This document shows, piece by piece, positions 5,625 to 64,000 of a stretch of DNA of 64,000 nt. The DNA lies in NCBI RefSeq assembly GCF_000332115.1, contig NC_020156.1, positions 3,225,501 to 3,289,500 on the forward strand. The letters run 5' to 3'. The stretch is from Nonlabens dokdonensis DSW-6 (lineage in GTDB: Bacteria; Bacteroidota; Bacteroidia; Flavobacteriales; Flavobacteriaceae). The translations under genes and the position numbers were made by a program. Under the pieces are notes generated by a model. It did no database searches, had not been told where the DNA came from, and saw nothing but the letters and a program-made list of their open reading frames with translations. Within the stretch, counting starts at the first letter, position 1. Each line of letters starts with the position of its first letter.

Positions 5625-5642
5625 CCGCTTTCGCGAAAGCGG
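5625..5642. repeat. Dispersed palindrome copy 1 (18 bp, intergenic)
   Basis: CCGCTTTCGCGAAAGCGG, a perfect 18-bp palindrome between the divergent prfB and threonine aldolase genes. The rest of this 186-base gap is AT-rich with no further gene seen. Confidence 0.9.
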
Positions 5643-5725
5643 AATTACAACAATAATATTTCTTTAAAACATAGTTTTAGGCACTATCATGATGCAAATT
5701 AGAAAGCTATTATTAATATTTATAT

Positions 5726-6742
5726 ATGATTGATTTAAGAAGTGATACGGTGACGAAACCTTCCAAAGGAATGATGGAGGCTATATTCAACGCACAAGTA
5801 GGTGATGACGTTTATAAGGAAGACCCAACTGTAAATGAGCTGGAAAGGCGAGTGGCAGAAATGTTCGGGATGGATGAGGCGCTTTTTTTTCCTACTGGTA
5901 GTATGGCAAATCAGGCAGCTATTAAAATGCACACGCAACCTGGTGAGCAATTGATTTGTGATAAATATGCTCATGTTTATAACTATGAAGGTGGAGGCGT
6001 TTCATTTAATAGTGGTGTTTCTTGTAAGCTCCTTGATGGAAGCAGAGGTATGATTACGGCAGCTCAAGTGGAGGAAGCAATTAATCCGCCTGATTTTTAT
6101 CATAGCCCGCTTACTACTTTAGTGTGTTTAGAGAATACAACAAATAAAGGTGGTGGCGCATGTTATGATATGCAAACATTTAAAGAAATTAAAGCGGTTT
6201 GTGAAAAGCATCAACTAGGCTTGCATCTCGACGGTGCTCGCCTATGGAACGCTATTATAGCTACCGGTCAGGATCCTAAAGATTACGGGAAAATTTTTGA
6301 TACTATATCAGTCTGTTTTTCTAAAGGGATGGGAACTCCATTAGGAACTGTACTTTGTGGTAAGAAGGAAATAATGAAAAAAGCGATGCGAGTTCGTAAA
6401 GTACTAGGCGGCGGCATGAGGCAAATAGGTTTTATGGCTGCGGCAGCAATTTATGCGCTTGATCATAATTTTGAACGTCTTCAACAAGATCATCTTAGAG
6501 CACAAGAATTGGGAACATTTCTTTCAAAATTACCTTATGTTTCTAAGGTAGAGCCTATAGAAACTAATATTATCATTTTTGAGGTAGCTGATGAAAATAA
6601 GATTATAAATTACCTCACCGAGCATGATGTAATCATTAGTAATATGGGAAGTGGTAAGCTTAGACTAGTGACACATTTAGATTATACAGATGAAGATCAA
6701 TCAAATATGAAACAAATTCTAAGCGATTACTTAAAAATATAA
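5726..6742 (+). CDS. ltaE: Low-specificity L-threonine aldolase
   Basis: A PLP enzyme that cleaves L-threonine (and allo-threonine) to glycine and acetaldehyde. The 338 residues match family length. Signatures are MIDLRSDTVTKPS at the start, the PTGSMANQ turn (about 56-63), HLDGARLWNA (about 167-176) and the Schiff-base lysine in CFSKGMGTPLG (Lys200). The protein is cytosolic. The gene stands alone, divergent from prfB, with only AT-rich DNA and the palindrome upstream. Confidence 0.92.
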   Translation: MIDLRSDTVTKPSKGMMEAIFNAQVGDDVYKEDPTVNELERRVAEMFGMDEALFFPTGSMANQAAIKMHTQPGEQLICDKYAHVYNYEGGGVSFNSGVSCKLLDGSRGMITAAQVEEAINPPDFYHSPLTTLVCLENTTNKGGGACYDMQTFKEIKAVCEKHQLGLHLDGARLWNAIIATGQDPKDYGKIFDTISVCFSKGMGTPLGTVLCGKKEIMKKAMRVRKVLGGGMRQIGFMAAAAIYALDHNFERLQQDHLRAQELGTFLSKLPYVSKVEPIETNIIIFEVADENKIINYLTEHDVIISNMGSGKLRLVTHLDYTDEDQSNMKQILSDYLKI

Positions 6743-6821
6743 TTCTTAAAGTGAAGTTAAAAAGCCATACGTCGATGTTTAAACTCTTTTTAACTAACTT
6801 AACTAGCATAAGTATCTCCAT

Positions 6822-6854
6822 TTGATTATTTAGACTTAAATTATATCACCTTTG
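6822..6854 (+). promoter_or_regulatory. Candidate promoter of the OmpA-family gene
   Basis: TTG at 6822-6824, a 22-base spacer, then CACCTTTG at 6847-6854, one base off the Bacteroidota -7 consensus TAnnTTTG. The start codon is 30 bases further on. Confidence 0.45.
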
Positions 6855-6884
6855 TAAAATAATTATAATTTAAATTCAACCTAA

Positions 6885-7997: not shown

Positions 7998-8031
7998 TCA
8001 TAGAGAATAGTTTAATTCAATATCAAGATTT

Positions 8032-8061
8032 AAAAGACCGCTTTAAAAGGCGGTCTTTTTT
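8032..8061. terminator. Bidirectional terminator
   Basis: A 10-bp stem AAAAGACCGC / GCGGTCTTTT with an 8-base loop and flanking T and A runs, between the convergent OmpA-family and AcpH-like genes. Confidence 0.85.
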
Positions 8062-8072
8062 ATTTTAAAGAA

Positions 8073-8663: not shown

Positions 8664-8671
8664 GTGCTTAA

Positions 8672-8724: not shown

Positions 8725-10119
8725 ATGACTCTTATAAAATCTATTTCAGGAATTCGTGGTACCATAGGTGGAGCTCCAGGCGATAATCTTACACCATTAG
8801 ATGCTGTAAAATTTGCTAGTGCTTATGCCATTTGGATCAAAGAAAACTCCAAAAAGAAGGCGCCAAAGGTAGTTATAGGAAGAGATGCGCGACTTAGTGG
8901 CTCTATGATTCAGTCTTTGGTACAAAATACACTGATAGGAATGGGATGTCATGTGGTAGATTTAGGTTTAAGTACCACACCTACTGTAGAACTTGCAGTT
9001 CCTAATGAAAAAGCAGATGGAGGAATTATACTTACAGCAAGTCATAACCCTAAAGAATGGAATGCATTAAAGCTTCTTAACAATGAAGGTGAATTTCTAA
9101 ACGGTGCTGAAGGGCAGAAAATATTAGATAGTGCAGAAAAGGAAGATTTTGTATATTCTGAAGTAGATGATCTAGGTACGGTAGAAGTAATAGAAGATTA
9201 TATTGACCGACACATCAAGATGGTTTTAGATATGCCTGTCACCCAAATTGAAGCTATAAAATCTGCTGGATTTAAGGTCGTTGTTGATGGCGTTAATAGT
9301 ACTGGTGGAATAGCCATACCTGATCTATGTAAGGCATTAGGAGTAGAAGTTGTTGAATTGTATTGTGACCCTACCGGACATTTTCCACACAATCCAGAGC
9401 CATTAAAAGAGCATTTAGCAGATTTATGTAAAGCAGTCGTTTCTCATAATGCAGACTTTGGTATTACAGTAGATCCAGATGTGGACCGATTAGCTTTTGT
9501 AGATGAAAAAGGAGAAATGTTTGGTGAAGAATATACGCTAGTTGCTTGTGCAGATTATATTTTGGGTCATAATAAAGGAAATACTGTTTCAAATCTATCT
9601 TCATCGAGAGCATTAAGAGATGTTACTGAAAAACATGGTGGCGAATACTTTGCTGCTGCAGTAGGAGAAGTGAACGTTGTGCAAAAGATGAAAGATAAAA
9701 ATGCAGTGATAGGCGGCGAAGGTAATGGCGGTATCATTTATCCAGAATCTCACTATGGTAGAGATGCATTGGTAGGTGTAGCGATGTTTTTATCATTGCT
9801 TACTGAAAAGAAAATGAAGGTAAGTGAATTGCGGGCAAGTTACCCTTCTTACTTTATGAGTAAAAAGAAAGTACAATTAGTTAAGGGAATGCCAGTTGAT
9901 GCGATTCTTGCTGATATACATCAGAAATATAAAAATGATGAAGTTACCAGCATTGATGGTATTAAAATAGACTTTGCTGATCAATGGGTTCACATGAGAA
10001 AATCAAATACAGAACCTATCATACGCATTTATACAGAAGCTCCTTCTCAACAAAAGGCAGACGAACTAGCAAGCCGTTTTATTGCTGAACTCGAGGAGAT
10101 AGCTCAACAGCACGCTTAG
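8725..10119 (+). CDS. glmM: Phosphoglucosamine mutase
   Basis: Converts glucosamine-6-phosphate to glucosamine-1-phosphate for UDP-GlcNAc, peptidoglycan and lipid A synthesis. The 464 residues (from ATG 8725) show the alpha-D-phosphohexomutase layout: SGIRGTIGG near the N-terminus, the phosphoserine loop TASHNPKEWN (Ser106), the metal loop DPDVDRLAF, the sugar loop GEGNGG, and the phosphate-binding end RKSNTEPIIRIY. Phosphomannomutase activity cannot be excluded from sequence alone. The 3' end overlaps the convergent acyltransferase gene by 41 bases. The start was chosen because the upstream TTG at 8701 is part of the promoter. Confidence 0.88.
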   Translation: MTLIKSISGIRGTIGGAPGDNLTPLDAVKFASAYAIWIKENSKKKAPKVVIGRDARLSGSMIQSLVQNTLIGMGCHVVDLGLSTTPTVELAVPNEKADGGIILTASHNPKEWNALKLLNNEGEFLNGAEGQKILDSAEKEDFVYSEVDDLGTVEVIEDYIDRHIKMVLDMPVTQIEAIKSAGFKVVVDGVNSTGGIAIPDLCKALGVEVVELYCDPTGHFPHNPEPLKEHLADLCKAVVSHNADFGITVDPDVDRLAFVDEKGEMFGEEYTLVACADYILGHNKGNTVSNLSSSRALRDVTEKHGGEYFAAAVGEVNVVQKMKDKNAVIGGEGNGGIIYPESHYGRDALVGVAMFLSLLTEKKMKVSELRASYPSYFMSKKKVQLVKGMPVDAILADIHQKYKNDEVTSIDGIKIDFADQWVHMRKSNTEPIIRIYTEAPSQQKADELASRFIAELEEIAQQHA

Positions 10120-10990
10120 TATTCTCTAAGGTGGACTTCCATCTTTTATGGGACCATAAATAATATTCTGGCTGCTTGATGATTTGCTCTTCAAGCAGTT
10201 GGAAAAATGTGTCTGTAATTTCCCAATCTTCAGTCTCGGCTCCATTATTAGAGATTAAAACAAACTCAGTCTCATAATAGCCTCTTTTTACTTTTGCAAT
10301 TCTCAGAAAAGCTACAGCAGTTGCATATTCTTTTGCAATGCGCTCTGCACCTTTAAAAACAGCGCTAGGAGTATTAAAAAAGTTAGTGAAATATTGTGCT
10401 CTTGCAGCTTTTGGCGACTGATCTGCAACTAGTGCAAAAAGAGCTGCTTCATTTTCAGCAGATTTTTTCATTACCGCCGTGGCTTCTTTCATAGCAATCA
10501 ATTCACTATTAAATTTTTTTCTGATATCGACAATCAAGTCATTGAATTTTTTATTTTTTATAGGTTTATAAATGGCATAAACCTTATAATCTAAAATCTC
10601 ATCTAGAACCATAGTCCATTCATAACTCGCTTGATGACCGAACATCACAATTATGGGTTGATTCGCTTTCGCGAAAGCGTTAACCATTTCAGGATTCTTA
10701 CAAATAAATCTTTTGTTCATCGCTTTTTTACTCATTCCCATGGATTTAATCATCTCAATGAAAATGTCGCAGAAATGTTGAGTACTTTTTTTAGCCAATT
10801 GCACAATCTCCTTTTCGGATTTATGAGGAAAGGCTATTTTTAAATTTTTCTTTATGACGTCCTTGCGGTATCCTATTAGGTAATAAACGATTAGATATAA
10901 AAAGTCACTTAATAAATAAACCACGGGAAATGGAAGGCGAGAAATCACCCATAGAAAATGATATGCGAGATAAAAAGCAAGGGCTTGCAT
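10079..10990 (-). CDS. Lysophospholipid / lipid A acyltransferase (HtrB-LpxL type)
   Basis: A 303-residue inner-membrane acyltransferase that adds a secondary acyl chain to lipid A or a related lipid. It has an N-terminal hydrophobic segment (about 2-40) and the HX4E catalytic motif GHQASYEW (His119, Glu124). The later ADQSPKAARAQYFTNFFN block corresponds to the second family motif. Residues 105-109 (AFAKA) are encoded by a copy of the dispersed palindrome. A TATATTTG -7 element lies on the minus strand at 11005-11012. The last 41 bases overlap glmM, tail to tail. Confidence 0.82.
   Translation of the reverse strand: MQALAFYLAYHFLWVISRLPFPVVYLLSDFLYLIVYYLIGYRKDVIKKNLKIAFPHKSEKEIVQLAKKSTQHFCDIFIEMIKSMGMSKKAMNKRFICKNPEMVNAFAKANQPIIVMFGHQASYEWTMVLDEILDYKVYAIYKPIKNKKFNDLIVDIRKKFNSELIAMKEATAVMKKSAENEAALFALVADQSPKAARAQYFTNFFNTPSAVFKGAERIAKEYATAVAFLRIAKVKRGYYETEFVLISNNGAETEDWEITDTFFQLLEEQIIKQPEYYLWSHKRWKSTLENTKRAVELSPRVQQ
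10664..10679. repeat. Dispersed palindrome copy 2 (coding)
   Basis: CGCTTTCGCGAAAGCG, perfect 16 bp, inside the acyltransferase gene and read as Ala-Phe-Ala-Lys-Ala. Confidence 0.9.
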
Positions 10991-12910: not shown

Positions 12911-15280
12911 ATGGAAAAAATATCAAATAGTGATCACATGATTGTCAACCTTACTTTTAAAAAGGTTGTAGATCAATATTTGAACAGACTTGAAGATGTA
13001 GAAAGTAATTTTAGAAAACTGTATATCTCTTCAATTCTACGATATGTCGATGATCATGAAGAGTTGGTTTCAGGAATCAAGGAAGATGAAATAGCTTTTC
13101 ATAAAGAATCGATAAGTATCATGCTTTCTGATTTATTTCCAGCAGCTTTAACTCTCAATGAAATTAAGGCAGCAACGGTTCCATTTTCTGATATACTTTT
13201 CAACAAAACCCAACGACTTAAAAACATCCTGAATGATGCTGGTGAAGATTTTCACTTACAAATAATGACAGGAGATTCATTTGATACTTTTAGAATGTCT
13301 TGTGGTGTTATTCTTAATAACTACTATAATAAAGCAATAGATCTGAGCAGGCCTATTTTTGTACATATTCCAGATGCTAAAGGTTCTGATCGCACCTATC
13401 GAATAACTTATAATGCTGATTTTGTAGACATTAATATCAATGATAAAGAGCACGAGCTGTCGTCACAAGATATTAAAGAGTTGCTACGTTCTCCCGATGA
13501 TCAAGAACTATGGAGAAAGTCATTTCCTAAAGACAGTTACACATTCAATGGCTTTGGTATTGTTTCTTTTACAGATGTGACCATGGATGCAGCTATATCT
13601 GATTTGAAGACTATTTTACTAGATAGTAGTTCTTCTAAAAAAGATCAAACAGATAAGATAAAGACAATTTTCAAAAAGATTTTTAATCTTGAAAACCTTC
13701 AGGTAGGATTTACATCTTTTGATCATTTTGAGAATACATTTGAATCCATGATTTATGATGATGCAAAAAGTTTTTTATTAGCAGATAGTAGCGAGAAGCA
13801 TTGTAATAACGCACTTTGTGCAGACAGTTACAGCCACCTAATTAAGAATTTTGAACCGCTTGTCATAACAGACGTAGACGATTATGCAACTAAAATTGAC
13901 AACACGTACTTAACAGATAATCTCAAAAAAAATAATATTCAGAGTGCTATCTTTTATCCAATAACTAAAGGAAGTGAATTAATAGGTGTATTAGAAATAG
14001 TAAGTCTTAAGAAGTTTGCTTTAAATAGTTTTAATGTTTCTAAAATAGAAAGTGTTGCCGGTTACATAAAAGCAGCGCTAATAAGAACCGAAGAAGAACA
14101 TGAAAATAGCGTCAAAGCATTGATCCAGACAGAATGTACTTCTATACATCCCAGCGTGCAATGGAAATTTGAAAAGGAGGCGCGTCGTATTTTAAAATAT
14201 CGAGCAAGAGAAAAGAAAAACGAGCCCTTTAGAGACATTAGTTTTAGAGATATCTATCCTATCTATGGTCAAATAGACATTGTAGGAAGTAGTGATGCTC
14301 GTAATCAAGCGATTAAAAAAGACTTGATGAATCAAATGGATAAAGTAGGTGAGATATTCGCATTCGCGAAAGCGTACGAAAAACTACCTATCTACGATCA
14401 AATATCTTATCGAGTTAAAGAATATTGCAATGAATTAGAGAATACCAATATCGACGCCAACTCAGAACGTGACATTATTAAGTTGTTGAATAACGAGATC
14501 AATCCTGTTATGAAGCACCTTAAAACTTTATCTCCTAAAATATGTGAGCTAGTTGACGTTTATCAATCAGAAATTGATGTGACTTCTGGCGTAATTTATA
14601 AGAATAGAAATGATTATGATAATACCGTTCAAGCTATAAACGACTCATTAACAAGTCTTATAGATAGTAAGCAAAAGGAAGCACAAGATATTTTCCCGCA
14701 TTATTTTGAACGATTTAAAACTGATGGAGTAGAACATAATATTTACGTAGGGAAAAGTATTACCAGCAGTGAAGAATTTAATATTGTTTATCTATACAAT
14801 TTGAGGTTATGGCAATTGCAAACCATGATCGATATGGAAAATCAGTTTTATGCTGTGCAAGAGCAATTACCTACGGTTGTTGAAGCAGCAAGTATGATAC
14901 TAGTTTTTGATAATACACTAAGCATTAGATATCGCATAGACGAAAAAAGATTTGATGTAGATGGTGCTTACAATGCTAGGTATGAAGTAATTAAAAAGCG
15001 TATTGATAAAGCCAATATAAAAGGCACAAATGAGCGAGTTACTCAAAAAGGTAAAATAGCTATTGTCTATACAAATGAGGAGACAGAGCGAGAATACATG
15101 AGATACATTAATTTCTTACAACACAATCACCTCATAGGATCAAACGTGGAACATCTAGAATTAGAAGATGTTCAAGGTGTGATAGGTCTTAAGGCTATAA
15201 GAGTCGAAGTTTTGTACAATACTGATGCTAGCGAGGACACTTTAACTTATGACGACCTCGTTAAGGAGCTAAATCTTTAA
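12911..15280 (+). CDS. GAF-domain regulatory protein
   Basis: A 789-residue cytosolic protein. A GAF-like domain spans about residues 230-395, including EPLVITDVDDYAT and IFYPITKGSELIGVLEIVS, a fold that often binds cyclic nucleotides or other small ligands. The long helical C-terminal part has a characteristic SIHPSVQWKFEKEA ... FRDIYPIYGQIDIVGSSDARN block (about 415-465), then IEDE-type coiled segments. No kinase, cyclase or HTH domain is visible, so the output is unknown. The 3' end overlaps the convergent HD-PycTM gene by 20 bases. An alternative start is ATG 12938 (MIVNLTFKK), favoured if the promoter at 12875-12906 is real and not leaderless. Residues near 484-488 carry a palindrome-derived AFAKA. 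Confidence 0.75.
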   Translation: MEKISNSDHMIVNLTFKKVVDQYLNRLEDVESNFRKLYISSILRYVDDHEELVSGIKEDEIAFHKESISIMLSDLFPAALTLNEIKAATVPFSDILFNKTQRLKNILNDAGEDFHLQIMTGDSFDTFRMSCGVILNNYYNKAIDLSRPIFVHIPDAKGSDRTYRITYNADFVDININDKEHELSSQDIKELLRSPDDQELWRKSFPKDSYTFNGFGIVSFTDVTMDAAISDLKTILLDSSSSKKDQTDKIKTIFKKIFNLENLQVGFTSFDHFENTFESMIYDDAKSFLLADSSEKHCNNALCADSYSHLIKNFEPLVITDVDDYATKIDNTYLTDNLKKNNIQSAIFYPITKGSELIGVLEIVSLKKFALNSFNVSKIESVAGYIKAALIRTEEEHENSVKALIQTECTSIHPSVQWKFEKEARRILKYRAREKKNEPFRDISFRDIYPIYGQIDIVGSSDARNQAIKKDLMNQMDKVGEIFAFAKAYEKLPIYDQISYRVKEYCNELENTNIDANSERDIIKLLNNEINPVMKHLKTLSPKICELVDVYQSEIDVTSGVIYKNRNDYDNTVQAINDSLTSLIDSKQKEAQDIFPHYFERFKTDGVEHNIYVGKSITSSEEFNIVYLYNLRLWQLQTMIDMENQFYAVQEQLPTVVEAASMILVFDNTLSIRYRIDEKRFDVDGAYNARYEVIKKRIDKANIKGTNERVTQKGKIAIVYTNEETEREYMRYINFLQHNHLIGSNVEHLELEDVQGVIGLKAIRVEVLYNTDASEDTLTYDDLVKELNL
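14359..14374. repeat. Dispersed palindrome copy 3 (coding, one mismatch)
   Basis: CGCATTCGCGAAAGCG inside the GAF gene, one base off the consensus, read as Ala-Phe-Ala-Lys-Ala. Confidence 0.75.
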
Positions 15281-16485: not shown

Positions 16486-19400
16486 ATGATTCATAGACTT
16501 ACAAAGCAAAATAACATTCTTTTATTACTTACAGCAATAATTGTCACAGGATGTGCCAGTTTTAAAGCCCAATATAAAGAAGAAGTACAAACTACATTTC
16601 CTGATTACTTAGAAATAGATAAATCTTTCTATCTTATAGGTGATGTAGGTAAATCACCTATAGGTGGTAAAAGCGACGGATTACTGGCTCTCGAGAGCTA
16701 TTTGAAAACACAATCTACACAAGACGATCACCTCATATTTTTAGGTGATAATATTTATCCTACTGGAATGCCAGAGAAGGATTCTGATTTTAGACCTTAT
16801 GCCGAAAATCATCTGGATGCGCAAATAGATGTCGCTAAGTCTTTTAAAGGAAAAACAATTTTTATACCTGGTAATCATGACTGGTACAATGAAGGACTTA
16901 AAAATGTGGAGCGAGAAAAAAAATACATTGAGAAAAAACTTGACAATAAAAATATCTGGGAACCTAAAGTAGGTTGTCCTATTGAGGGCATAGATATTAA
17001 TAAAGATATTTATTTAATAATCGTTGATAGTCAGTGGTACCTTGCAAGATGGGATGATCATCCTACTATTAATGATGATTGTGATCAAATAAAAACTCGT
17101 GAGCAATTCTTTCTTGAAATAGAAGGAGAATTTAAGAAAAATCAAGATAAGACTATTGTTTTTGCGTTGCACCATCCTTTGTATACTAATGGAATTCACG
17201 GTGGACAGTATGCTGCAATTAAGCATTTATATCCTTCTCAATCTGCTATTCCAGTACCTATTTTAGGATCTTTGGCTACACAAATCAGAACCAGCGGTGG
17301 CGTGAGTGCTCAGGATAAACAAAATAAGAGATACCAAGAAATGGTAGATAGAATCGCTACTCTTGCAAGAGCTTCAGCGGCTCCTAGAATCATATTTACG
17401 AGTGGTCATGAGCATACACTTCAATACATTGAGCATGAAGGCATACGACAGATTGTTTCGGGAAGTGGAGCAAAAGAAAGCTATGCGACTTTAAGTAATG
17501 ACGGTTTGTTCTCTTATGGTGGTCAAGGTTTTGCTCGACTCGATGTCATGAAAGATGGGAGCAGTTGGGTTCGTTATTTTGGTTTTGAAAATGGGAAAGA
17601 AAAGCTGTTATTTGCGCATCAAGCTATAGGAACACCTATAAACTTTGATTTAGAGAAATTACCAGATGATTATCCCGCTTTCGCGAAAGCGAGTATATAT
17701 GACAAAGAACGAGTAGAAAAAAGCGCCGTTTTTGAATCTGTATGGGGAAATAAATACAGGGACTTGTATGGTACTGAAATCAATGCCAAAGTAGGAATAT
17801 TAGATTCCTTAAAAGGAGGACTGACCGTAATGCGATCAGGTGGAGGACACCAGACGCGTTCATTGAGACTTGTAGATAAAGATGGTAAAGAGTACAATTT
17901 ACGAGCATTGAAGAAAAGTGCGGTGCAGTTCCTACAAACCACTGTGTTTAAGGAAAATACTGTTGCAGCATCTTTTGAAGACACGACAGCTGAAGATTTG
18001 CTGTTTGATTTTTATACCGCTGCCCATCCGTACGCAGCACTTACAGTCCCTAAATTGAGTGATGCGGTAGGAATTTATCATACAAATCCAGAGATTTACT
18101 TTATTCCTAAGCAACTTGCACTAGGAAAATACAATACTGCCTACGGTGACGAACTTTATTTATTGGAAGAACGTCCCGAAGAGCATCATTTAGATCAAGA
18201 AAGCTTTGGAAAACCTGATGATATAGAAAGTACTGCCGATATTTTTGAAAAGTTAAGGGAAGATGAAAAGTTTACCATAGATCAGAAAGCCTTTGTAAAA
18301 GCTCGCATCTTTGACATGTTAATAGGAGATTGGGACAGGCATCAAGATCAATGGCGCTGGTCTCAATTTAAGCAAGATGATGGCAGCAGTATTTTTGTTC
18401 CTATTCCTAGAGACCGAGATCAAGTGTATTCAAACTTTGACGGTGCTTTGTTTGCAACATTGAGAGTAATGATAGGACTTACAAATCAATTTGCGACCTA
18501 CGACGATGATATAGATAATGTAAAATGGTTCAATACTGCAGCAACATACTTAGATAGAAACCTTGCCCAAGAGGCAGATCGAGAAGTATGGATCAATCAA
18601 GCAGAATATATTAAGAATAACTTGTCTGACGCAGTAATTGAGGAGGCGTTCAAAGAATTACCAGCCGAAATTTATCCAGATGCTTCTACTGAAAAGATCA
18701 TCAAAAACATGAAGTTGAGACGTGATGATATTGTAAAAATCACAGAGCGATACTACGATTATCTTGCAAAATTAGCAATTGTCACAGCTACAGATAAAGA
18801 TGATTTTATAGTTATTGACAGGTTTGAAAAAGGGAAAACGCGTATAACAGTTTATAGGAATAAAGATGGTGAAAAAGCTGATGTAGTTTTAGACCGTGTA
18901 TTTTTAAAGAGTGAGACTAACGAAATATGGGTTTATGCATTAGATGATGATGATATTATTCAAGCGGTAGGAAATGCCAAAGGAAAAATTAAAGTACGAG
19001 TTATAGGTGGTCAAAATAATGACATTTATGATCTGGAAAATGGAGATGCCATTTCTATATATGATCACAAATCAAAAGAAAACACCTTTAAAAATAAAGG
19101 AGGCGCAAGAATTAGGCTATCAGATAAATATAATAGGAACCATTATAATCCTAAAAAGAATATCTCAACGGTAAACTCCTTGACACCTAGCATAGGGTTT
19201 AACCCAGATGATGGCTTTAGGATTGGAGTTCAAAACACCTTTGTATTTAATGGTTTTAATCGTAATCCAAATACAAGAGTTCATAAAATTAGAGCTGGAT
19301 ATTATTTTGCTACCCAAGGTTTTGATGTGAACTACAACGGGACTTTTGCTGGAATCTTTAACCAGATGAATCTTACGGTAAAAGCAAGATTTTCTGGACC

Positions 19401-20220
19401 TACGTTTGCAGAGAATTTCTTTGGTTTAGGTAATGAAACTGTAAATAACGATGATGATCTAGGATTTGATTTTAATCGTGTGCGTCTAAGTGAGTTTACC
19501 ACTGGAGTAGGAGTAAGCTATAAAGGTGAATATGGTTCTAATTTGAATGCTGGTCTTGAGGTTCAAAGTTTTCAAGTAGAGGCAGATCAAGGTAGATTTT
19601 TAGAGTCTATTTTTGCTGATCCTTCAACTAACCCTGAATTTTTTGAGCGTAAATGGTTCGTAGAATTGAATGGTGGTTATAATTATGAAAGCTACGATAA
19701 CAACTTAAATCCAACTCGAGGGATGATATTTGATGTTAAAGCTGGAGTAAATGCTGATAAAGATGATTTAGATAACACTTTTGGATACTTCCAACCCAAA
19801 TTAGGTTTTTACAATGCTTTAAGTCGTAATCGTAAGTTAGTACTCAAAACTTTAACTCAAGCTACTATAAATATAGGTGATGGTTTTAATTTTTATCAAA
19901 GCGCACAATTAGGTCAGAATACAGGTTTAAGAGGTTATAGAACTCAACGATTTTCAGGAGAAAGTGCTTTTGCTGGAACTGCTGATGTACGATACAGTTT
20001 TAATGAGTTTAAAACAGGTCTAGTTCCTTTACAAATAGGAGTATTTGGAGGAGTAGATGTAGGTAGAGTGTGGCTTGATGGTGAGGATAGTGAAATATGG
20101 CATAACAATTATGGAGGTGGATTTTGGGTAAATAGCTCAAAAGCAATAGGAGCAACTTTCAATCTCTTTCATGGTGAAGACGGACTAAGGTTTAGTTTTC
20201 AAGTCGGTTTTAGTTTTTAA
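16486..20220 (+). CDS. Lipoprotein fusion: metallophosphoesterase, kinase-like domain and Omp85 beta-barrel
   Basis: A 1244-residue outer-membrane lipoprotein (lipobox VTGC, Cys23). Residues about 46-320 are a calcineurin-like metallophosphoesterase with all motifs: GDVG (Asp53), GDN (Asp88), GNHD (130-132), LHHP and GHEH (His308, His310). Residues about 420-800 contain LIGDWDRHQDQWRW (612-625) followed by PIPRDRDQVYSNFDG, which resembles the catalytic loop and metal site of FAM20/CotH-type atypical kinases; this is inference. Residues about 880-1244 are an Omp85/BamA-like barrel with the loop-6 motif GLRGYRTQRFSG and an aromatic C-terminus. The gene is followed by a terminator. A palindrome copy encodes AFAKA near residue 398. 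Confidence 0.82.
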   Translation: MIHRLTKQNNILLLLTAIIVTGCASFKAQYKEEVQTTFPDYLEIDKSFYLIGDVGKSPIGGKSDGLLALESYLKTQSTQDDHLIFLGDNIYPTGMPEKDSDFRPYAENHLDAQIDVAKSFKGKTIFIPGNHDWYNEGLKNVEREKKYIEKKLDNKNIWEPKVGCPIEGIDINKDIYLIIVDSQWYLARWDDHPTINDDCDQIKTREQFFLEIEGEFKKNQDKTIVFALHHPLYTNGIHGGQYAAIKHLYPSQSAIPVPILGSLATQIRTSGGVSAQDKQNKRYQEMVDRIATLARASAAPRIIFTSGHEHTLQYIEHEGIRQIVSGSGAKESYATLSNDGLFSYGGQGFARLDVMKDGSSWVRYFGFENGKEKLLFAHQAIGTPINFDLEKLPDDYPAFAKASIYDKERVEKSAVFESVWGNKYRDLYGTEINAKVGILDSLKGGLTVMRSGGGHQTRSLRLVDKDGKEYNLRALKKSAVQFLQTTVFKENTVAASFEDTTAEDLLFDFYTAAHPYAALTVPKLSDAVGIYHTNPEIYFIPKQLALGKYNTAYGDELYLLEERPEEHHLDQESFGKPDDIESTADIFEKLREDEKFTIDQKAFVKARIFDMLIGDWDRHQDQWRWSQFKQDDGSSIFVPIPRDRDQVYSNFDGALFATLRVMIGLTNQFATYDDDIDNVKWFNTAATYLDRNLAQEADREVWINQAEYIKNNLSDAVIEEAFKELPAEIYPDASTEKIIKNMKLRRDDIVKITERYYDYLAKLAIVTATDKDDFIVIDRFEKGKTRITVYRNKDGEKADVVLDRVFLKSETNEIWVYALDDDDIIQAVGNAKGKIKVRVIGGQNNDIYDLENGDAISIYDHKSKENTFKNKGGARIRLSDKYNRNHYNPKKNISTVNSLTPSIGFNPDDGFRIGVQNTFVFNGFNRNPNTRVHKIRAGYYFATQGFDVNYNGTFAGIFNQMNLTVKARFSGPTFAENFFGLGNETVNNDDDLGFDFNRVRLSEFTTGVGVSYKGEYGSNLNAGLEVQSFQVEADQGRFLESIFADPSTNPEFFERKWFVELNGGYNYESYDNNLNPTRGMIFDVKAGVNADKDDLDNTFGYFQPKLGFYNALSRNRKLVLKTLTQATINIGDGFNFYQSAQLGQNTGLRGYRTQRFSGESAFAGTADVRYSFNEFKTGLVPLQIGVFGGVDVGRVWLDGEDSEIWHNNYGGGFWVNSSKAIGATFNLFHGEDGLRFSFQVGFSF
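17676..17691. repeat. Dispersed palindrome copy 4 (coding)
   Basis: Perfect CGCTTTCGCGAAAGCG inside the phosphoesterase-Omp85 gene, read as Ala-Phe-Ala-Lys-Ala in the linker after the phosphoesterase domain. Confidence 0.9.
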
Positions 20221-20470: not shown

Positions 20471-21418
20471 TTACTTCAATAAGAACTCTAGAGGTAATGC
20501 TACTCGCTGTTGCCAGTATTTCTCACTATGTTCATGACCTTCAAACTTTCTGTACAATAAATTTTGATCTGTATAACCTAGTTGGTAAAACATGTCATTC
20601 ACTTTTAACTGGTGTGGTTCATAAACCTTATCTAAAGTTTTAGTTCCATGATCAAAGTAAATTTTATGAAAAGTAGGCTCTGGAACTGATGTAGGTAATT
20701 CATCCATAAACGCTTGACCTAAATAGGGTATAGGCCAGTGCGTACTCAAACAGCCTGCTTTCCCAAACGTATCTGGATATTTGATCATTGCATATAAAGA
20801 AATGTGCGCTCCCATGGAGGCTCCCATGGTTATGGTATGTTCTGGCTCTTTGGAAGTTTGAAACTTTTCATTTACAAACGGTAGTAGCTCTTGAGTCATG
20901 AACTTTAAATAATTGTCGCTAAGTAGTTTATCGCTGCCGAAGTTCTTCTTTAATTCCGCTTTCGCGAAAGCGGACTCACTTAAACTCTTAGGTAATTGAG
21001 GCATATACTCACTAAAGCGCTTCTCTCCATTATTCCAGATTCCCACAACTATCGTAGGACGTATAGCGTTTATGGCAAGAAGTGAATCTACTTTTTCTTC
21101 AATTTCCCAAGCGACACCAGAGTAGGAAGTCTCTTTATTAAACACATTCTGACCATCGTGCATGTAAAGCACTTGATACTTTACGTTTTTTTCTGGGTAA
21201 TTTTTAGGCAACCATACTTCTACATTACGACTGTCAACAAATTTTGACTTGAAATCAATAAAATAAATGATAGTGTCGTTACTTGAAGAATGAATTGTTG
21301 TAGCTTGCTCCACTTCAGCGGTTGACTTGACTTCAAATATATTCTTGGGGGAATTGTCTTTGCAGCTTAGCATGCTGGCGATTATAAAGAATAAGGAGTA
21401 ATTGATTAAATATTTCAT
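20471..21418 (-). CDS. Esterase-like alpha/beta hydrolase lipoprotein
   Basis: A 315-residue putative lipoprotein (lipobox MLSC, Cys19) of the esterase D/enterochelin-esterase fold (PF00756). It shows the oxyanion region YMHDGQNVF (about 85-93), the nucleophile elbow MGASMGAH (Ser201), and the late FEGHEHSEKYW segment carrying the catalytic histidine. It probably hydrolyses an ester in the periplasm or at the outer membrane; the substrate is unknown. The start is 3 bases after the stop of the response regulator, so it is the third gene of a kinase-regulator-esterase operon. Residues 150-154 (AFAKA) come from a perfect palindrome copy. Confidence 0.82.
   Translation of the reverse strand: MKYLINYSLFFIIASMLSCKDNSPKNIFEVKSTAEVEQATTIHSSSNDTIIYFIDFKSKFVDSRNVEVWLPKNYPEKNVKYQVLYMHDGQNVFNKETSYSGVAWEIEEKVDSLLAINAIRPTIVVGIWNNGEKRFSEYMPQLPKSLSESAFAKAELKKNFGSDKLLSDNYLKFMTQELLPFVNEKFQTSKEPEHTITMGASMGAHISLYAMIKYPDTFGKAGCLSTHWPIPYLGQAFMDELPTSVPEPTFHKIYFDHGTKTLDKVYEPHQLKVNDMFYQLGYTDQNLLYRKFEGHEHSEKYWQQRVALPLEFLLK
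20956..20973. repeat. Dispersed palindrome copy 5 (18 bp, coding)
   Basis: CCGCTTTCGCGAAAGCGG inside the esterase gene, read as Ser-Ala-Phe-Ala-Lys-Ala. Confidence 0.9.
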
Positions 21419-25995: not shown

Positions 25996-26013
25996 CCGCT
26001 TTCGCGAAAGCGG
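25996..26013. repeat. Dispersed palindrome copy 6 (18 bp, intergenic)
   Basis: CCGCTTTCGCGAAAGCGG, 13 bases after the M49 stop codon and 5 bases before a terminator hairpin. Confidence 0.9.
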
Positions 26014-34445: not shown

Positions 34446-34463
34446 CCGCTTTCGCGAAAGCGG
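34446..34463. repeat. Dispersed palindrome copy 7 (18 bp, intra-operon gap)
   Basis: CCGCTTTCGCGAAAGCGG, filling half of the 39-base space between the exonuclease gene and the RsmI-like gene. Confidence 0.9.
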
Positions 34464-37634: not shown

Positions 37635-37964
37635 ATTTTTCGTAATTGCAAAGTAGTGAAACCATGTGAATTTTCAAATGCCTTTTTTAAGGTTATCGTA
37701 ATTATTGGGTTCTCGCTTTCGCGAAAGCGCAATTATTTAATAAACATTATTAAAATTTCAGACGGTAACGAAATACTACTAGTAGGGTTAAAATTACTTT
37801 AACGATTGTTTAACAACTGAATGACAACCAGTTATTCATATCTCTCGTAGATAGTATATGGTTCGAAAATTTAATTTGAAGAAATATCCATTTTTCGGCT
37901 TCTATTCATTGTTAAATAATTTCAATCATAACTAATTTAATTAATAACCAAAATAAATAACATT
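37635..37964. other. Intergenic region between divergent acyl-CoA ligase and T9SS type A genes
   Basis: A 330-base AT-rich gap holding promoters for both directions. It contains palindrome copy 8 at 37714-37729 and no convincing gene. I found no perfect TAnnTTTG; the nearest is TTAATTTG around 37872 ahead of the T9SS gene. The stretch just before ATG 37965 (ATAACCAAAATAAATAAC) is typical of flavobacterial leaders. Confidence 0.5.
37714..37729. repeat. Dispersed palindrome copy 8 (intergenic)
   Basis: Perfect CGCTTTCGCGAAAGCG, 80 bases upstream of the acyl-CoA ligase start. Confidence 0.9.
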
Positions 37965-43047: not shown

Positions 43048-43063
43048 CACTTTCGCGAAAGCG
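43048..43063. repeat. Dispersed palindrome copy 9 (one mismatch, between two terminators)
   Basis: CACTTTCGCGAAAGCG, one base off the consensus, placed between the terminators of the convergent T9SS type A and clpB genes. Confidence 0.75.
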
Positions 43064-45755: not shown

Positions 45756-45890
45756 AATTTTCATTTTATTTCAAGTAGTCAATTCTTATACCTTAACTCG
45801 ATTTTGACATTTCGACAGATATTTCAAACAGTTTAACAGACATTATGTCTTGTTTATAAAAGCATTAGTAATATTTAAAGAGGTTAGCTT

Positions 45891-45937: not shown

Positions 45938-45953
45938 CGCTTTCGCGAAAGCG
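45938..45953. repeat. Dispersed palindrome copy 10 (leader of ytxJ)
   Basis: Perfect CGCTTTCGCGAAAGCG, 17 bases upstream of the ytxJ ATG. Confidence 0.9.
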
Positions 45954-45970: not shown

Positions 45971-46378
45971 ATGGGATTTATGGACAAGCTGTTTAAATCA
46001 CAGCGGGATATTGCAAAGGAGGAAATGACGGGAATTCGATGGGAACTCTTAGAGTCTATCGACCAATTAGAGAACGTAATTAAGAATTCTACGATAAAAC
46101 CTAAAGTGATTTTTAAGCACAGTACACGCTGTGGAATTTCAAGGATGGTTTTAAATCAGTTTGAAAAAGGTTTTGAATCTAATGAAGATGCGGTAACCTT
46201 CTACTTTTTAGATTTATTAAATTATAGAGAGGTAAGCAATGCAGTAGCAGAAAAGCTTAACGTTAGGCATCAATCACCTCAAGTTATAATTTTATATGAC
46301 AAAGAGATTCTTCATACAGAGTCTCATCATGGAATTGATATTAAAAAAGTGCAACAAATAGTTTCTAATAAAAAGTAA
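45971..46378 (+). CDS. ytxJ: YtxJ-type monothiol bacilliredoxin
   Basis: A 135-residue thioredoxin-fold protein of the YtxJ (DUF2847) family that removes bacillithiol from S-bacillithiolated proteins. The single active-site cysteine is in KHSTRCGISRMVL (Cys54), and the SPQVIILYDKEI segment provides the cis-Pro loop. It implies that this organism makes bacillithiol, though no bsh gene is in the window. It is cytosolic. The next gene starts at the base after its stop, so the two are co-transcribed. Confidence 0.87.
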   Translation: MGFMDKLFKSQRDIAKEEMTGIRWELLESIDQLENVIKNSTIKPKVIFKHSTRCGISRMVLNQFEKGFESNEDAVTFYFLDLLNYREVSNAVAEKLNVRHQSPQVIILYDKEILHTESHHGIDIKKVQQIVSNKK

Positions 46379-47258: not shown

Positions 47259-48575
47259 ATGAAAGATATTCTACCTAAAGGCTCCAAAAAATTATTAAAC
47301 GCTTGGGCGTTTTATGACTGGGCAAATTCTGTTTATAGTCTTGTTATTAATAGTGCGATCTTCCCGCTGTTTTATGCAGCAATTAGTGTTGAAGCTTTTG
47401 AAAAGGGCAATGTTCCCGATATGTTAAAAGGTGTCAATAATGAGTCTATTATTATCGTAACTACGGCAATTGCATTTCTAATTGTAAGTATCATTTCACC
47501 TATTTTATCTGGTATTGCCGACTATTCTGGACAGAAGAAGCGTTTCTTACAGTTCTTTTGTTATTTAGGAGCTTTTAGTTGTATAGGTCTCGCGGCATTT
47601 AGTTTTGATTATTTATGGATCAGTTTGATCATTTATATGCTGGCGCTCATAGGCTTTTGGGGCAGTCTGGTTTTTTATAATTCTTACTTACCAGATATAG
47701 CTTTTCCAGAACAGCAAGATGCAATAAGTTCTAAAGGATTTTCCTTAGGATACTTGGGAAGTGTGTTATTGCTTGCATTTTGTCTTTGCATGACTGTATT
47801 TGGATTGTATCCAGAAAGCGGAGAGATATTGGGGTTAGATGCTGTTCAGATGTCTTTTATTCTTGTTGGAATTTGGTGGATGAGTTTTGCACAATACACA
47901 TATAAATATTTGCCTTTAGGAACTAAAAAAGATAGGAGTGAAGTGAAAAACATTTTTACAAATGGTTTTCAAGAGCTTAAGAAAATATGGAGCAACTTGA
48001 GTGAAAATAAGCAAATGAAGCGTTACTTAGGTGCGTTCTTTATTTATAGCATGGCCGTGCAAACGGTAATGCTAGTCGCCACTTACTTTGGAACTGAAGA
48101 AGTGAAATGGGATAAGAATGGTGCAACCTTTGGATTGATAATGAGTATAATGTTAATTCAGTTTGTTGCTATTCTGGGAGCTTGGTTAGCCAGTTTGCTT
48201 TCGCGAAAGCTAGGTAACATCAAAACACTTATCATAATAAATATTCTTTGGGCGTTAATTTGTGTTTATGGATACTTTGTTGTGACGCCATTACAGTTTT
48301 ACATAACCGCTGGTTTTGTAGGTCTAGTGATGGGTTCTATTCAATCACTTTCAAGGAGTACTTATTCTAAAATGATTCCAGAAGGCAATCTAGATACTGC
48401 ATCGTACTTTAGTTTTTATGATGTTGCAGAAAAAATCGGGATAGTCATAGGTATGCTCATTTTTGCTATCGTAGGAGAAATAAGCGGTTCTATGAGAGAA
48501 CCTATATTGTTTTTAATTGTATTCTTTATTACTGGAATAATTTTACTTATTCGAGTGCCTAGATTGCAAAAATGA
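47259..48575 (+). CDS. UMF1/YxiO-type major facilitator transporter
   Basis: A 438-residue inner-membrane protein with about 12 hydrophobic helices. The opening LLNAWAFYDWANSVYSLVI and the later SPILSGIADYSGQKKRFL loop are hallmarks of the UMF1 (Atg22-like) branch of the MFS. The substrate is unknown; eukaryotic relatives export amino acids. The ATG lies directly after the T tract of the upstream terminator, so there is no room for a separate leader. A palindrome core at 48197-48210 is read as LSRK, a different frame from the other coding copies. Confidence 0.85.
   Translation: MKDILPKGSKKLLNAWAFYDWANSVYSLVINSAIFPLFYAAISVEAFEKGNVPDMLKGVNNESIIIVTTAIAFLIVSIISPILSGIADYSGQKKRFLQFFCYLGAFSCIGLAAFSFDYLWISLIIYMLALIGFWGSLVFYNSYLPDIAFPEQQDAISSKGFSLGYLGSVLLLAFCLCMTVFGLYPESGEILGLDAVQMSFILVGIWWMSFAQYTYKYLPLGTKKDRSEVKNIFTNGFQELKKIWSNLSENKQMKRYLGAFFIYSMAVQTVMLVATYFGTEEVKWDKNGATFGLIMSIMLIQFVAILGAWLASLLSRKLGNIKTLIIINILWALICVYGYFVVTPLQFYITAGFVGLVMGSIQSLSRSTYSKMIPEGNLDTASYFSFYDVAEKIGIVIGMLIFAIVGEISGSMREPILFLIVFFITGIILLIRVPRLQK
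48197..48210. repeat. Dispersed palindrome copy 11 (14-bp core, coding)
   Basis: GCTTTCGCGAAAGC inside the MFS gene, read in another frame (Leu-Ser-Arg-Lys). Confidence 0.7.
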
Positions 48576-54215: not shown

Positions 54216-54231
54216 CGCTTTCGCGAAAGCG
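54216..54231. repeat. Dispersed palindrome copy 12 (upstream of lon)
   Basis: Perfect CGCTTTCGCGAAAGCG in the 273-base gap between the divergent sigma-factor and lon genes. The remainder of that gap is AT-rich, with no gene seen. Confidence 0.9.
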
Positions 54232-62165: not shown

Positions 62166-62170
62166 AATAT

Positions 62171-62178
62171 CAAAGATA
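62171..62178 (-). promoter_or_regulatory. -7 promoter element of the mntA-hepT operon
   Basis: TATCTTTG on the minus strand fits TAnnTTTG. Only 5 bases separate it from the mntA ATG, again suggesting a leaderless or very short leader. The rest of the 120-base gap to the helicase stop is AT-rich and shows no gene. Confidence 0.4.
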
Positions 62179-62285
62179 GATAATTACTTTGCAAATTCGT
62201 AACTACATTATATTGTCTGATAGACAGAGTGATAAATTTTTAATTTGAACTGTCTAAATGAATGTGTTGGAAATTAAAACTAATA

Positions 62286-63602
62286 TTACTCCAACCTATA
62301 AATCCTCACCTTACGTTTCTTAATCTTAGAATCATTCAATTCCTGACAAAGTTGATAAGCCTTTTCAAAAGGAACAGCCACAAAAGCACAATCTTGCTTT
62401 AATTCTATAATTCCTAATTCATTTTTATCAAGATTTCCTTGTTTAAAGAACAGTCCTGCGATATCACCTTTAGAGATTTTATCTTTTCTACCGCCAGAAA
62501 TAAAAAGGGTTTCCCATTTTTGATCTTGTGTTACTTTAAGGCGTTCTGTGTATTCGAGTGGCGTGCTTTCTTCTATATAGTCTGGTAAAGGGTGTTTTTT
62601 ATTGTGGAGAATGTAGGCAGTTCCATCGGCATGCATTCTTGCAGTACGGCCATTTCTATGGGTAAATTCTTCTTTATGAAAAGGCAATTCATAATGAATG
62701 ATAAAATCCAATTCTGGCACATCTATTCCACGAGCGGCAAGATCTGTAGCAAGTAAAAGCTGGTGCGTTCCGTTTCTAAACTTAATTAAAGCACGCTCAC
62801 GATCTCGTTGTTCCAATCCTCCAAAGAATACCGAATGTGATATATTACTACTTTCTAAAAACTCACTGACTTCTTCAATAGAGTCTTTAAAATTACAAAA
62901 GATGATTCCGTTGCCGTTGCCTGTTCTAGCGATAATTTGTTCCAGATTAATAAATCGATTCTTAGAATCAGAAGCTAATGTCTTTATTTTTAGAACACTA
63001 TCCGTTTTCTTTTCAAACTTCAACACCTGCGGATTCTCCAATCCTACAAATGAAGGAACTTTTGCTTTGAAAGTCGCTGATGTGAGAATATTGCGTCCTA
63101 CATTCGGTAAGGCATTTACGATTTCCTTCATTTCTTTTTCAAAACCGGTTTCTAGCGATTTATCAAATTCGTCAAGAATCAATGTTTTGATAAATAAAGG
63201 ATCAAAAGATTCACGTCTCAAATGATCTGCAATTCTTCCTGGCGTTCCTACGAGTATAGTAGGAGTGTGGTTCAAATCTTCTTTATCCTTTGCACCAGCA
63301 CGACCACCATAGATCGCGTTGGCTTTATAGCCTGTTCCCATTTCTCTTATGACTTGTTCTATTTGAATAGCAAGTTCGCGAGAAGGAACAAGAATTAAAG
63401 CTTGAACTTCAACAAGGTCAGGATTTAATTGTTCAATTACTGGTAATAAAAAAGCAAGTGTTTTTCCAGTTCCAGTAGGAGAAATGAGTACCGTATCACG
63501 ATGATTTGTAATCGCCTCATGAGCTTGAAGCTGCATGTCGTTTAATGATACAATTCCTAATTTATCTAGAATTTGCTGTTGTGATTTTATGGAATTGTTC
63601 AT
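62286..63602 (-). CDS. DEAD-box-type RNA helicase with DbpA RNA-binding domain
   Basis: A 438-residue ATP-dependent RNA helicase. Domains: Q motif (LGIVSLNDMQLQAHE), motif I SPTGTGKT (41-48), Ia PSRELA, motif II as LDEFD instead of DEAD, motif III SATF, helicase C domain (GIIFCNFKD, LLATDLAARGID, HRNGRTAR) and a C-terminal DbpA RNA-binding domain (KGDIAGLFFKQGNLDKNELG ... KVRIYRL), which in DbpA targets 23S rRNA hairpin 92 in 50S assembly. The 3' end of this gene is duplicated 926 bases away, beyond the HepT-MntA pair. Confidence 0.9.
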   Translation of the reverse strand: MNNSIKSQQQILDKLGIVSLNDMQLQAHEAITNHRDTVLISPTGTGKTLAFLLPVIEQLNPDLVEVQALILVPSRELAIQIEQVIREMGTGYKANAIYGGRAGAKDKEDLNHTPTILVGTPGRIADHLRRESFDPLFIKTLILDEFDKSLETGFEKEMKEIVNALPNVGRNILTSATFKAKVPSFVGLENPQVLKFEKKTDSVLKIKTLASDSKNRFINLEQIIARTGNGNGIIFCNFKDSIEEVSEFLESSNISHSVFFGGLEQRDRERALIKFRNGTHQLLLATDLAARGIDVPELDFIIHYELPFHKEEFTHRNGRTARMHADGTAYILHNKKHPLPDYIEESTPLEYTERLKVTQDQKWETLFISGGRKDKISKGDIAGLFFKQGNLDKNELGIIELKQDCAFVAVPFEKAYQLCQELNDSKIKKRKVRIYRLE

Positions 63603-63764
63603 TTGATTTTGTTTTTACTTTTAATACAAGCTATCGAGATTATACCAGCATTTGTAAACCTTTCCGACCAATGTTCGTTTCACTCACATTGCCCACCTTT
63701 CCTTTTCTAAGGAAAGGAGCTTTTAAAAATTGCAAGTTGATTTTAATTCAGCTAGCTTACCTTA

Positions 63765-64000
63765 TTACTTTAAAACCCTTTTCTCCAGCCACGCTTTCAT
63801 GTCATAAAAATTATCTCTGGCAACTCCATGACCTATTGGATAATCTTTAAAAACATAATCGGCACCTATTTCTTCCATGATGGCTGGTGCTTGCTTTGCC
63901 CATGCATAAGGTACGACTTGATCAACGGTTCCATGAGATATGAAGTAGTTTGTTTTGATCTCGCTTTCGCGAAAGCGGACTGACAAATCACTTCTTCCTG
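63765..64000 (-). CDS. Alpha/beta hydrolase (phospholipase/carboxylesterase family), 3' part
   Basis: The last 78 codons of an esterase of the PF02230 group; the start is beyond the window edge. The visible part carries the acid residue loop SHGTVDQVVPYAWAKQAPA and the catalytic histidine in YPIGHGVARDN. The frame continues open to base 64000. A palindrome copy at 63962-63977 is read as RFRES, not the more usual AFAKA. The 162-base gap before the helicase start contains a 9-bp hairpin (63696-63717) without a T run and nothing else recognised. Confidence 0.75.
   Translation of the reverse strand, partial: GRSDLSVRFRESEIKTNYFISHGTVDQVVPYAWAKQAPAIMEEIGADYVFKDYPIGHGVARDNFYDMKAWLEKRVLK
63962..63977. 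repeat. Dispersed palindrome copy 13 (coding)
   Basis: Perfect CGCTTTCGCGAAAGCG inside the hydrolase gene, read as Arg-Phe-Arg-Glu-Ser. Confidence 0.9.

What the first reader, a model, noticed from the sequence alone, without database searches (positions are those of the whole stretch)
5625..63977. A perfect palindrome, CGCTTTCGCGAAAGCG, is dispersed about every 5 kb
Ten exact 16-mers and three near copies occur: 5625, 10664, 14359, 17676, 20956, 25996, 34446, 37714, 43048, 45938, 48197, 54216 and 63962. Five are 18 bp with outer C/G. Chance predicts essentially none. Copies sit between divergent genes, in operon gaps, between terminators and inside genes. It resembles the cyanobacterial HIP1 idea (a highly iterated palindrome) or a nucleoid-protein or methylase site (TCGCGA core), but is longer. 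I recall similar repeats in related Flavobacteriaceae but cannot verify it.
Basis: partly seen in the sequence, partly recalled or inferred. Interest (0 to 1): 0.8.

Follow-up and report, generated by a model that had tools for sequence, protein, structure and literature searches.

The report
Evenly spaced 16-base genome palindrome
A perfect 16-letter DNA palindrome recurs hundreds of times, at unusually even spacing, in the genomes of a group of marine bacteria and is missing from a large newly acquired stretch, so it looks like a "self" tag, perhaps one used when cells take up each other's DNA.

Summary
CGCTTTCGCGAAAGCG has 10 exact and 4 near copies in the window (chance 0.04), 737 in the genome (reversed control 0) and 180-737 in all 23 genus genomes held. 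The motif is longer than 16 bp: the flanks add a symmetric pattern, about 40 bp in all. Sites exclude each other within ~2 kb, without periodicity beyond; about half lie inside genes, and many are held at orthologous places while flanks diverge. They are missing from three samples of a 94-kb NRPS-like island and from two Nonlabens phages, but occur in other phage contigs and in mobile islands in palindrome-poor genera. TCGCGA restriction, an m5C methylase, REP-RAYT, an extra Noc-like ParB and a hairpin each failed a test. Best reading: a palindromic DNA-uptake/self-recognition signal (0.45); main rival: the site of an unknown chromosome-binding protein (0.3). No receptor was identified; uptake was not tested. 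The open-access searches found no description.

The parts
5626..5641 (.). exact copy, 18-bp perfect palindrome, between the divergent genes of peptide chain release factor 2 (4433-5539, -) and a GntG-family PLP aldolase (5726-6742, +)
10664..10679 (.). exact copy inside a lipid A acyltransferase-family gene (10079-10990, -)
14359..14374 (.). one-mismatch copy inside a 789-aa gene without Pfam or NCBIfam match (12911-15280, +); exact at the aligned place in three of the genus mates aligned (G022, G007, G003)
17676..17691 (.). exact copy inside a metallophosphatase/Omp85-like gene (16486-20220, +)
20957..20972 (.). exact copy, 20-bp perfect palindrome, inside an esterase-family gene (20471-21418, -)
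25997..26012 (.). exact copy, 18-bp perfect palindrome, 14 bp behind a called gene in a gap between co-oriented genes
34447..34462 (.). exact copy, 18-bp perfect palindrome, in a short gap between two co-oriented genes
37714..37729 (.). exact copy between divergent genes
43048..43063 (.). one-mismatch copy between convergent genes (clpB at 43146-45764, - on the right)
45938..45953 (.). exact copy between the divergent genes clpB and a YtxJ/BrxC-family gene (45971-46378, +)
48196..48211 (.). two-mismatch copy inside an Atg22/MFS-like gene (47259-48575, +)
54216..54231 (.). exact copy between divergent genes
63962..63977 (.). exact copy inside a 672-bp called gene at the window's right end

Best explanation
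The palindrome is the core of a symmetric recognition site of about 40 bp (outward half: CGAAAGCG then R R A T n A n n A n A A) that marks a DNA fragment as own. Most likely it is a DNA-uptake signal: a surface or periplasmic receptor of the flavobacterial transformation machinery binds it as a symmetric dimer, so that orientation does not matter, and fragments carrying at least one site are imported preferentially and recombine into the chromosome. Alleles with the site are thus imported more often, so sites that arise by point mutation spread and are kept. One site per fragment is enough, which leaves no advantage to a second site within about 2 kb. Shown: the sequence, its extent and symmetry, lack of covariation between the halves, the exclusion, conservation at orthologous places, the lineage limits and the absence from one large island and two phages. 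Inferred: the receptor, the uptake itself, and that the drive is transformation.
For: Spacing: 5 neighbour pairs under 2 kb against 38-39 expected, pair counts flat beyond, as one-site-is-enough predicts. Missing from three 20-kb samples of a 94-kb NRPS-like island that is nearly absent from the 22 other genus genomes and from two Nonlabens phages. Indifferent to kind of gene gap. Held at orthologous places (29 of 55 aligned cases identical in both, random 16-column windows 1.8%) and often gained or lost by one substitution. Flank dialect differs between Dokdonia and our genome with the same core. ComEC in 10 of 10 rich genomes. Precedents: H. influenzae USS are relatively even and their largest gap is a strain-specific island (PMC7811141, passages); R. 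columbina, a flavobacterium, prefers its own DNA (PMC7965970, section 16). ComEC tree groups the three rich lineages (85/90; 96/94 without four long rows).
Against: No uptake experiment, no receptor, and no report of competence in Nonlabens or Dokdonia seen. Known USS and DUS are not palindromes (PMC1939737, passages). ComEC and DUF5689 are as common in palindrome-poor genomes (19 and 18 of 20), so the machinery does not discriminate. The ComEC grouping is not secured: the alternative placement has p-AU 0.395 (all rows) and 0.073 (long rows out), and the ParA+ParB data do not clearly reject the same grouping (p 0.050); the DUF5689 tree does not group the rich lineages. Evenness is weaker in G001 (CV 0.87) and the exclusion is weak in G211. 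Eleven viral contigs carry two or more copies, which transformation drive explains only through long residence in hosts.
Confidence: 0.45

Rival explanations
1. The site is bound inside the cell by an unknown dimeric, possibly DNA-bending protein that organises the chromosome (domain boundary, topoisomerase or condensin loading, nucleoid anchoring); a second site within 2 kb brings no benefit.
For: Perfect symmetry, independent halves and a footprint of about 40 bp suit a dimer on duplex DNA. Density is uniform round the chromosome: 17 samples of 20 kb outside the gap have 3-7 copies, dispersion 0.23. Strong conservation. The one chromosomal ParB itself was not excluded as binder, since no parS-like site was seen in the ParB loci or the 464 kb.
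Against: A 94-kb stretch without exact copies is tolerated. Copy number varies from 255 to 680 in genus mates of 2.9-3.3 Mb and 99% completeness. No Noc-like extra ParB: eight of ten rich genomes have one ParB-domain match, two have a second, 616-aa one that also occurs in poor genomes. No ori or ter bias seen.
Confidence: 0.3
2. The site is a self-mark that protects DNA from a host nuclease or defence system; temperate phages and mobile elements carry it to escape.
For: Phage contigs with terminase, portal or integrase genes carry it, 11 of 30 contigs with two or more copies; mobile islands carry it at host-like density.
Against: Two isolated Nonlabens phages do without it and a 94-kb chromosomal island persists without it. 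No defence gene was searched for.
Confidence: 0.1
3. HIP1-like product of methylation: a methyltransferase for the core and biased repair create and keep the palindrome.
For: Palindromic, iterated, and deviations fall on the outermost base (35 of 47 one-mismatch copies), as the HIP1 paper reports for HIP1 (PMC4390886, abstract and passages).
Against: TCGCGA outside the motif is at expectation. PF00145 methylases are absent from 4 of 10 rich genomes, two of which have 668 and 680 copies. The symmetric flanks and 2-kb exclusion are not explained. N6/N4 methylases were not tested.
Confidence: 0.07
4. A REP-like mobile palindrome spread by insertion (RAYT or other transposase).
For: High copy number; 52 of 105 copies in the 13% of DNA between genes. 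Nine of 13 'ours only' aligned cases involve gaps, one of them spanning the whole palindrome.
Against: Y1 transposase (PF01797) has no match in 5 of 10 rich genomes; 53 of 105 copies lie inside called genes; six of nine 'theirs only' cases differ by one substitution; copies keep apart.
Confidence: 0.03

Closest known systems
DNA uptake sequences (Pasteurellaceae USS, Neisseriaceae DUS)
   Same: Hundreds of copies, inside and between genes, relatively even spacing, lineage limits with dialects, gap at an acquired island (PMC7811141 and PMC1939737, passages; here)
   Different: Known ones are not palindromes; here the core is a perfect 16-bp palindrome with flanks on both sides. Uptake is not shown. 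Our density (one per about 5.3 kb) is lower than the USS mean spacing of about 1 kb.
HIP1 and alternate HIPs of cyanobacteria
   Same: Iterated palindrome, one-base deviations mostly at the outermost positions
   Different: 6-8 bp at about 500-2500 per Mb (PMC4390886, passages) against 16 bp plus flanks at 188 per Mb; no excess of the core outside the motif and no universal m5C methylase
parS and Noc-type sites of ParB-family proteins (motifs recalled)
   Same: 16-bp scale palindromes with TTTC...GAAA arms
   Different: Hundreds of sites without ori or ter bias; no extra ParB shared by the rich genomes
REP/BIME elements with RAYT transposases (recalled)
   Same: Palindromic, dispersed, many copies
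   Different: Half the copies lie in coding sequence; no Y1 transposase in 5 of 10 rich genomes

Membership tests
DNA uptake sequence (USS/DUS) | Sequence-specific enhancement of DNA uptake | not testable with these tools
   needs an uptake experiment
DNA uptake sequence (USS/DUS) | Hundreds of copies genome-wide, far above chance | tested here: met
   737 exact, control 0; 180-737 in 23 of 23 genus genomes
DNA uptake sequence (USS/DUS) | More even than random and absent from acquired DNA | tested here: met
   CV 0.54; island; two phages. Weaker in G001 and G211; some phages and islands do carry it
DNA uptake sequence (USS/DUS) | Host has a transformation machinery | tested here: inconclusive
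   ComEC and DUF5689 in 10 of 10 rich genomes but also in 19 and 18 of 20 poor ones
DNA uptake sequence (USS/DUS) | Oriented, non-palindromic core (shared by the known ones) | tested here: not met
   perfect palindrome
HIP | Methyltransferase for the core present where the palindrome is abundant | tested here: not met
   PF00145 has no match in 4 of 10 rich genomes; N6/N4 methylases not tested
REP/RAYT | Y1 transposase in the genome and mostly extragenic copies | tested here: not met
   no PF01797 match in 5 of 10 rich genomes; 53 of 105 copies in called genes
Noc/ParB sites | ParB-family paralogue shared by the genomes with the sites; biased placement | tested here: not met
   binding by the one common ParB not excluded
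Terminator or structured RNA | Pairing between the arms beyond the core, preference for gene ends | tested here: not met
   no covariation at mirrored flank positions 1-14; position 15 shows 84 matches against 65.7, 4 of 1000 shuffles; gap types used about by their length; no Rfam match at gathering score in the window

The most novel reading that the evidence does not exclude
A palindromic, orientation-free DNA-uptake (self-recognition) signal in Bacteroidota, separate from USS and DUS: it keeps about one site per fragment length by mutual exclusion, has flank dialects between genera, is read by an unidentified receptor of the flavobacterial transformation machinery, and reaches other genera inside mobile islands and phages.
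Probability: 0.4. Interest if true: 0.87.

Novelty: new variant of a known kind. Interest (0 to 1): 0.75.

Why it matters
If it is an uptake signal, it would add self-specific DNA import in a phylum whose transformation machinery is still largely unknown, with a ready-made probe of about 46 bp to fish out the receptor. If it is instead a chromosome-binding site, it marks an undescribed genome-wide system with hundreds of sites. Either way it gives a sequence tag for DNA that has lived in these lineages, such as the islands found in other genera.

Tried and rejected
Disfavoured by test: restriction at TCGCGA (no avoidance); an m5C methylase as shared cause; RAYT/REP; an extra Noc-like ParB; hairpin or terminator; strict periodicity (flat beyond 2 kb); restriction to promoters or terminators.

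Led nowhere: paper searches for the 16-mer, its decamer core and related terms gave nothing relevant in the listings; BLAST of a 36-mer against phage and plasmid records gave two records each at E 1 to 5, as expected of so short a query. DUF5689 as receptor candidate: its tree does not group the rich lineages. The conflict between ComEC and ParAB trees is a lead, not a result. The rich genome G211 could not be named. Not done: N6/N4 methylases, HU/IHF-type proteins, defence genes, structure prediction.

Limits: the gene calls are my own ORF heuristic. The 464 kb and the 20 sampled stretches are about 22% of the genome. In one search two sites (G010 and G005), each listed once as ours-only and once as theirs-only, look like one exact palindrome split by an alignment gap; leaving them out gives 31 shared, 13 ours, 9 theirs. 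Aligned cases are not independent, since one site of ours recurs against several genomes.
Full report
WHAT IS THERE. The window lies in a 3,914,632-bp single-contig genome. Its genus is Nonlabens by inference: genus mate G007 has a contig of the same length (2,403,690) as record CH672374.1, Flavobacteria bacterium BBFL7, which I recall as a Nonlabens; and named Nonlabens loci align to it at nucleotide level, for example one titled Nonlabens dokdonensis over 8 kb at 78%. In the window the 16-mer occurs 10 times exactly and 4 times with 1-2 mismatches, against 0.04 expected. Genome-wide there are 737 exact copies and none of the reversed control. In the 464 kb around and including the window there are 85 exact, 16 one-mismatch, 4 two-mismatch and 6 three-mismatch matches; 99 of the 125 TCGCGA hexamers there lie in TTTCGCGAAA. 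Parts of it are the most over-represented words at lengths 8, 10, 12 and 14.

EXTENT AND SYMMETRY. Over 214 exact copies from our genome and eight genus mates, the bases outside the 16-mer are biased symmetrically to about 12-15 bp on either side. In 51 intergenic copies of our genome (up to one mismatch), reading outward on the T-rich side: C/T, T/C, T (89%), A (62%), then T at -6, -9, -11 and -12, with C scarce to about -18; gene-borne copies show a similar bias in each frame, so codon structure alone does not make it. Mirrored flank positions 1-14 do not covary; position 15 does (84 matches against 65.7, reached in 4 of 1000 shuffles). The halves are thus mostly independent, as for a dimer on duplex DNA and unlike a hairpin. 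Of 47 one-mismatch copies, 35 deviate at the outermost base.

LAYOUT. Of 105 copies (up to 2 mismatches) in the 464 kb, 53 are inside called genes and 52 between them, on 87% and 13% of the DNA. The kinds of gap are used about by length: co-oriented 28 in 35.4 kb, divergent 15 in 14.3 kb, convergent 9 in 10.3 kb. Inside genes the frame that reads Ala-Phe-Ala-Lys-Ala is preferred (32 of 53). Neighbour distances have a CV of 0.54 (0.55 for exact copies), while 2000 random placements, uniform or weighted for gene gaps, never went below 0.70; 5 pairs lie under 2 kb where 38-39 are expected; pair counts are 1 and 4 in the first two kilobases against 23.8 expected and scatter about that number beyond. 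So sites exclude each other over about 2 kb but are not periodic. Of twenty 20-kb samples of the chromosome, the three inside one gap have none; the other 17 have 3-7 copies (mean 5.3, dispersion 0.23, P about 0.0009), without a visible trend. Among the first 100 exact places, the only ones listed, there is one gap of 94 kb (131.7-225.9 kb). In genus mate G001 evenness is weaker (CV 0.87; 11 pairs under 2 kb against 30 expected). In Dokdonia (G227) the exclusion is about 1 kb (1 pair in the first kilobase against 18.6, 17 in the second), and in G211 it is weak (3 and 7 against 9.2).

FOREIGN DNA. The three samples of the 94-kb gap hold very long, nonribosomal-peptide-synthetase-like ORFs and a transposase-like ORF by my reading, without a family search; a 12.5-kb piece has one match of 32 bp in each of two of the 22 other genus genomes and none in 20. 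Two isolated Nonlabens phages, P12024S and P12024L, have no copy within 3 mismatches in 35 kb each, where host density would predict about 13 in all. In the viral collection (2.9 million contigs), 30 contigs have an exact copy (41 stretches) and 11 of them have two or more. Ten proteins from four of these contigs were checked and nine matched phage families: two contigs have an integrase, one has terminase, portal and head protease, one has tape measure, portal and capsid. So some phages do carry it, and at least two of them are probably temperate.

WHO HAS IT. All 23 genus genomes held have 180-737 exact copies. In an even sample of 249 family genomes, 32 have any: three of our genus (495-737), G227 (630), G211 (153) and 27 with 1-12. 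With the 12-bp core alone, G000 has 879, G227 917 and G211 445 copies. The base next to the 16-mer is A in 54% of half-sites in G227 but C or T in 78% in our genus sample; in smaller samples of named loci the contrast is A 53% (Dokdonia) to 29% (Nonlabens). Some palindrome-poor genomes owe copies to imported DNA: in G097 all 19 core copies lie in one 78-kb stretch, which ends near a serine-recombinase-like gene beside an ftsZ-like gene and carries metal-efflux-like genes, all by my reading of the ORFs; G072 repeats part of its spacing; in the stretches of G033, G099, G108, G122, G132 and G165 looked at, copies sit mainly in metal-efflux-like ORFs. The eleven other stretches fetched were not read gene by gene, and G063 and G165 also have scattered 12-mers.

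HOW IT CHANGES. Aligning 40-60 kb of eight genus mates with our 464 kb gave 55 cases: 29 identical in both, 15 ours only, 11 theirs only; flank identity at shared sites is 0.76, and a random 16-column window is identical in 1.8%. Two listed pairs are one site split by an alignment gap, so the better count is 31, 13 and 9. Of the 9, six differ by one substitution; of the 13, nine involve gaps, one of them spanning the whole palindrome, so loss or gain by insertion or deletion occurs too. Against named loci: 5 shared, 4 ours, 4 theirs; four of the eight differing cases are single substitutions. Sites are strongly kept and often turn over by point change.

MECHANISM. To be explained: a long symmetric site, kept genome-wide, in any context, repelling copies within about 2 kb, absent from a recent island, confined to a few lineages. 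Uptake-biased transformation does this. For H. influenzae, PMC7811141 (passages) calls USS abundant and relatively even (mean spacing about 1 kb), names this the expected result of such a drive, and finds the largest USS gap at a strain-specific island. PMC1939737 (passages) says 65% of H. influenzae signals are in ORFs, stresses that known signals are not palindromes, and judges them not even enough for chromosome compaction. Transformation exists in relatives: Riemerella needs ComEC, DprA, ComF, RecA and four proteins without homologues in known machineries (PMC8459023, abstract and sections 19-20), and R. columbina prefers its own DNA, although k-mers up to 10 bp listed there are A/T-rich words (PMC7965970, passages and section 16). 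ComEC and DUF5689 are in all 10 rich genomes tested, but also in 19 and 18 of 20 poor ones. A ComEC tree of 29 genomes groups the three rich lineages (85/90; 96/94 after removal of four long rows), while a ParA+ParB tree puts Nonlabens with G097 and G099 (99/96); the tests do not settle it (ComEC with Nonlabens joined to G097 and G099: p 0.395, or 0.073 without long rows; ParAB with the rich lineages joined: p 0.050), and three gene sets were tried. It is a lead only.

RIVALS. An intracellular chromosome-binding protein explains symmetry and uniformity as well; the tolerated 94-kb gap and the spread of copy number (255 to 680 in 99%-complete genus mates of 2.9-3.3 Mb) speak mildly against a structural need. 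The single ParB could itself be the binder: no parS-like site was seen in the ParB loci or the 464 kb, but poor genomes have the same ParB family and no palindromes. A self-mark against a nuclease fits the phage contigs but not the island. Methylation, RAYT and Noc readings failed the tests listed.

NOVELTY. Open-access papers were searched for the 16-mer (none), TTTCGCGAAA (ten papers, none relevant by title), iterated palindromes with Flavobacter (none), Nonlabens/Dokdonia/Donghaeana with palindromes (25 of 51 listed), and two wider term sets; listings only, and no description was seen. Subscription papers and preprints were not covered. HIP1 (PMC4390886, abstract and passages) and uptake sequences are the nearest kinds; a 16-bp palindrome with symmetric flanks and mutual exclusion is a new variant.

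Noticed in passing
G000:C1 131,700-225,900 (samples L224, L225, L226): 94-kb stretch without an exact palindrome; its samples hold NRPS-like giant ORFs, and a 12.5-kb piece is nearly absent from the 22 other genus genomes.
   Followed up: partly
G097 contig 3, about 31-116 kb (L313-L317): Large mobile-looking island with a serine-recombinase-like gene, metal-efflux-like genes and many small unknown genes, full of the palindrome in an otherwise palindrome-free genome; a related one in G072.
   Followed up: partly
L187, L190, L202, L212, L219 and other viral loci: Phage contigs of unknown hosts carry up to six exact palindromes (IMGVR_UViG_3300040781_000495, 37 kb), which may tell their hosts.
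   Followed up: partly
window 12911-15280: A 789-aa protein without Pfam or NCBIfam match; DNA of the stretch 12900-20220 matches at least in part in all 22 other genus genomes.
   Followed up: no
ParB loci L283-L312 and the 464 kb around the window: No canonical parS-like sequence was seen near parB in the 30 family genomes looked at, nor in the 464 kb.
   Followed up: no
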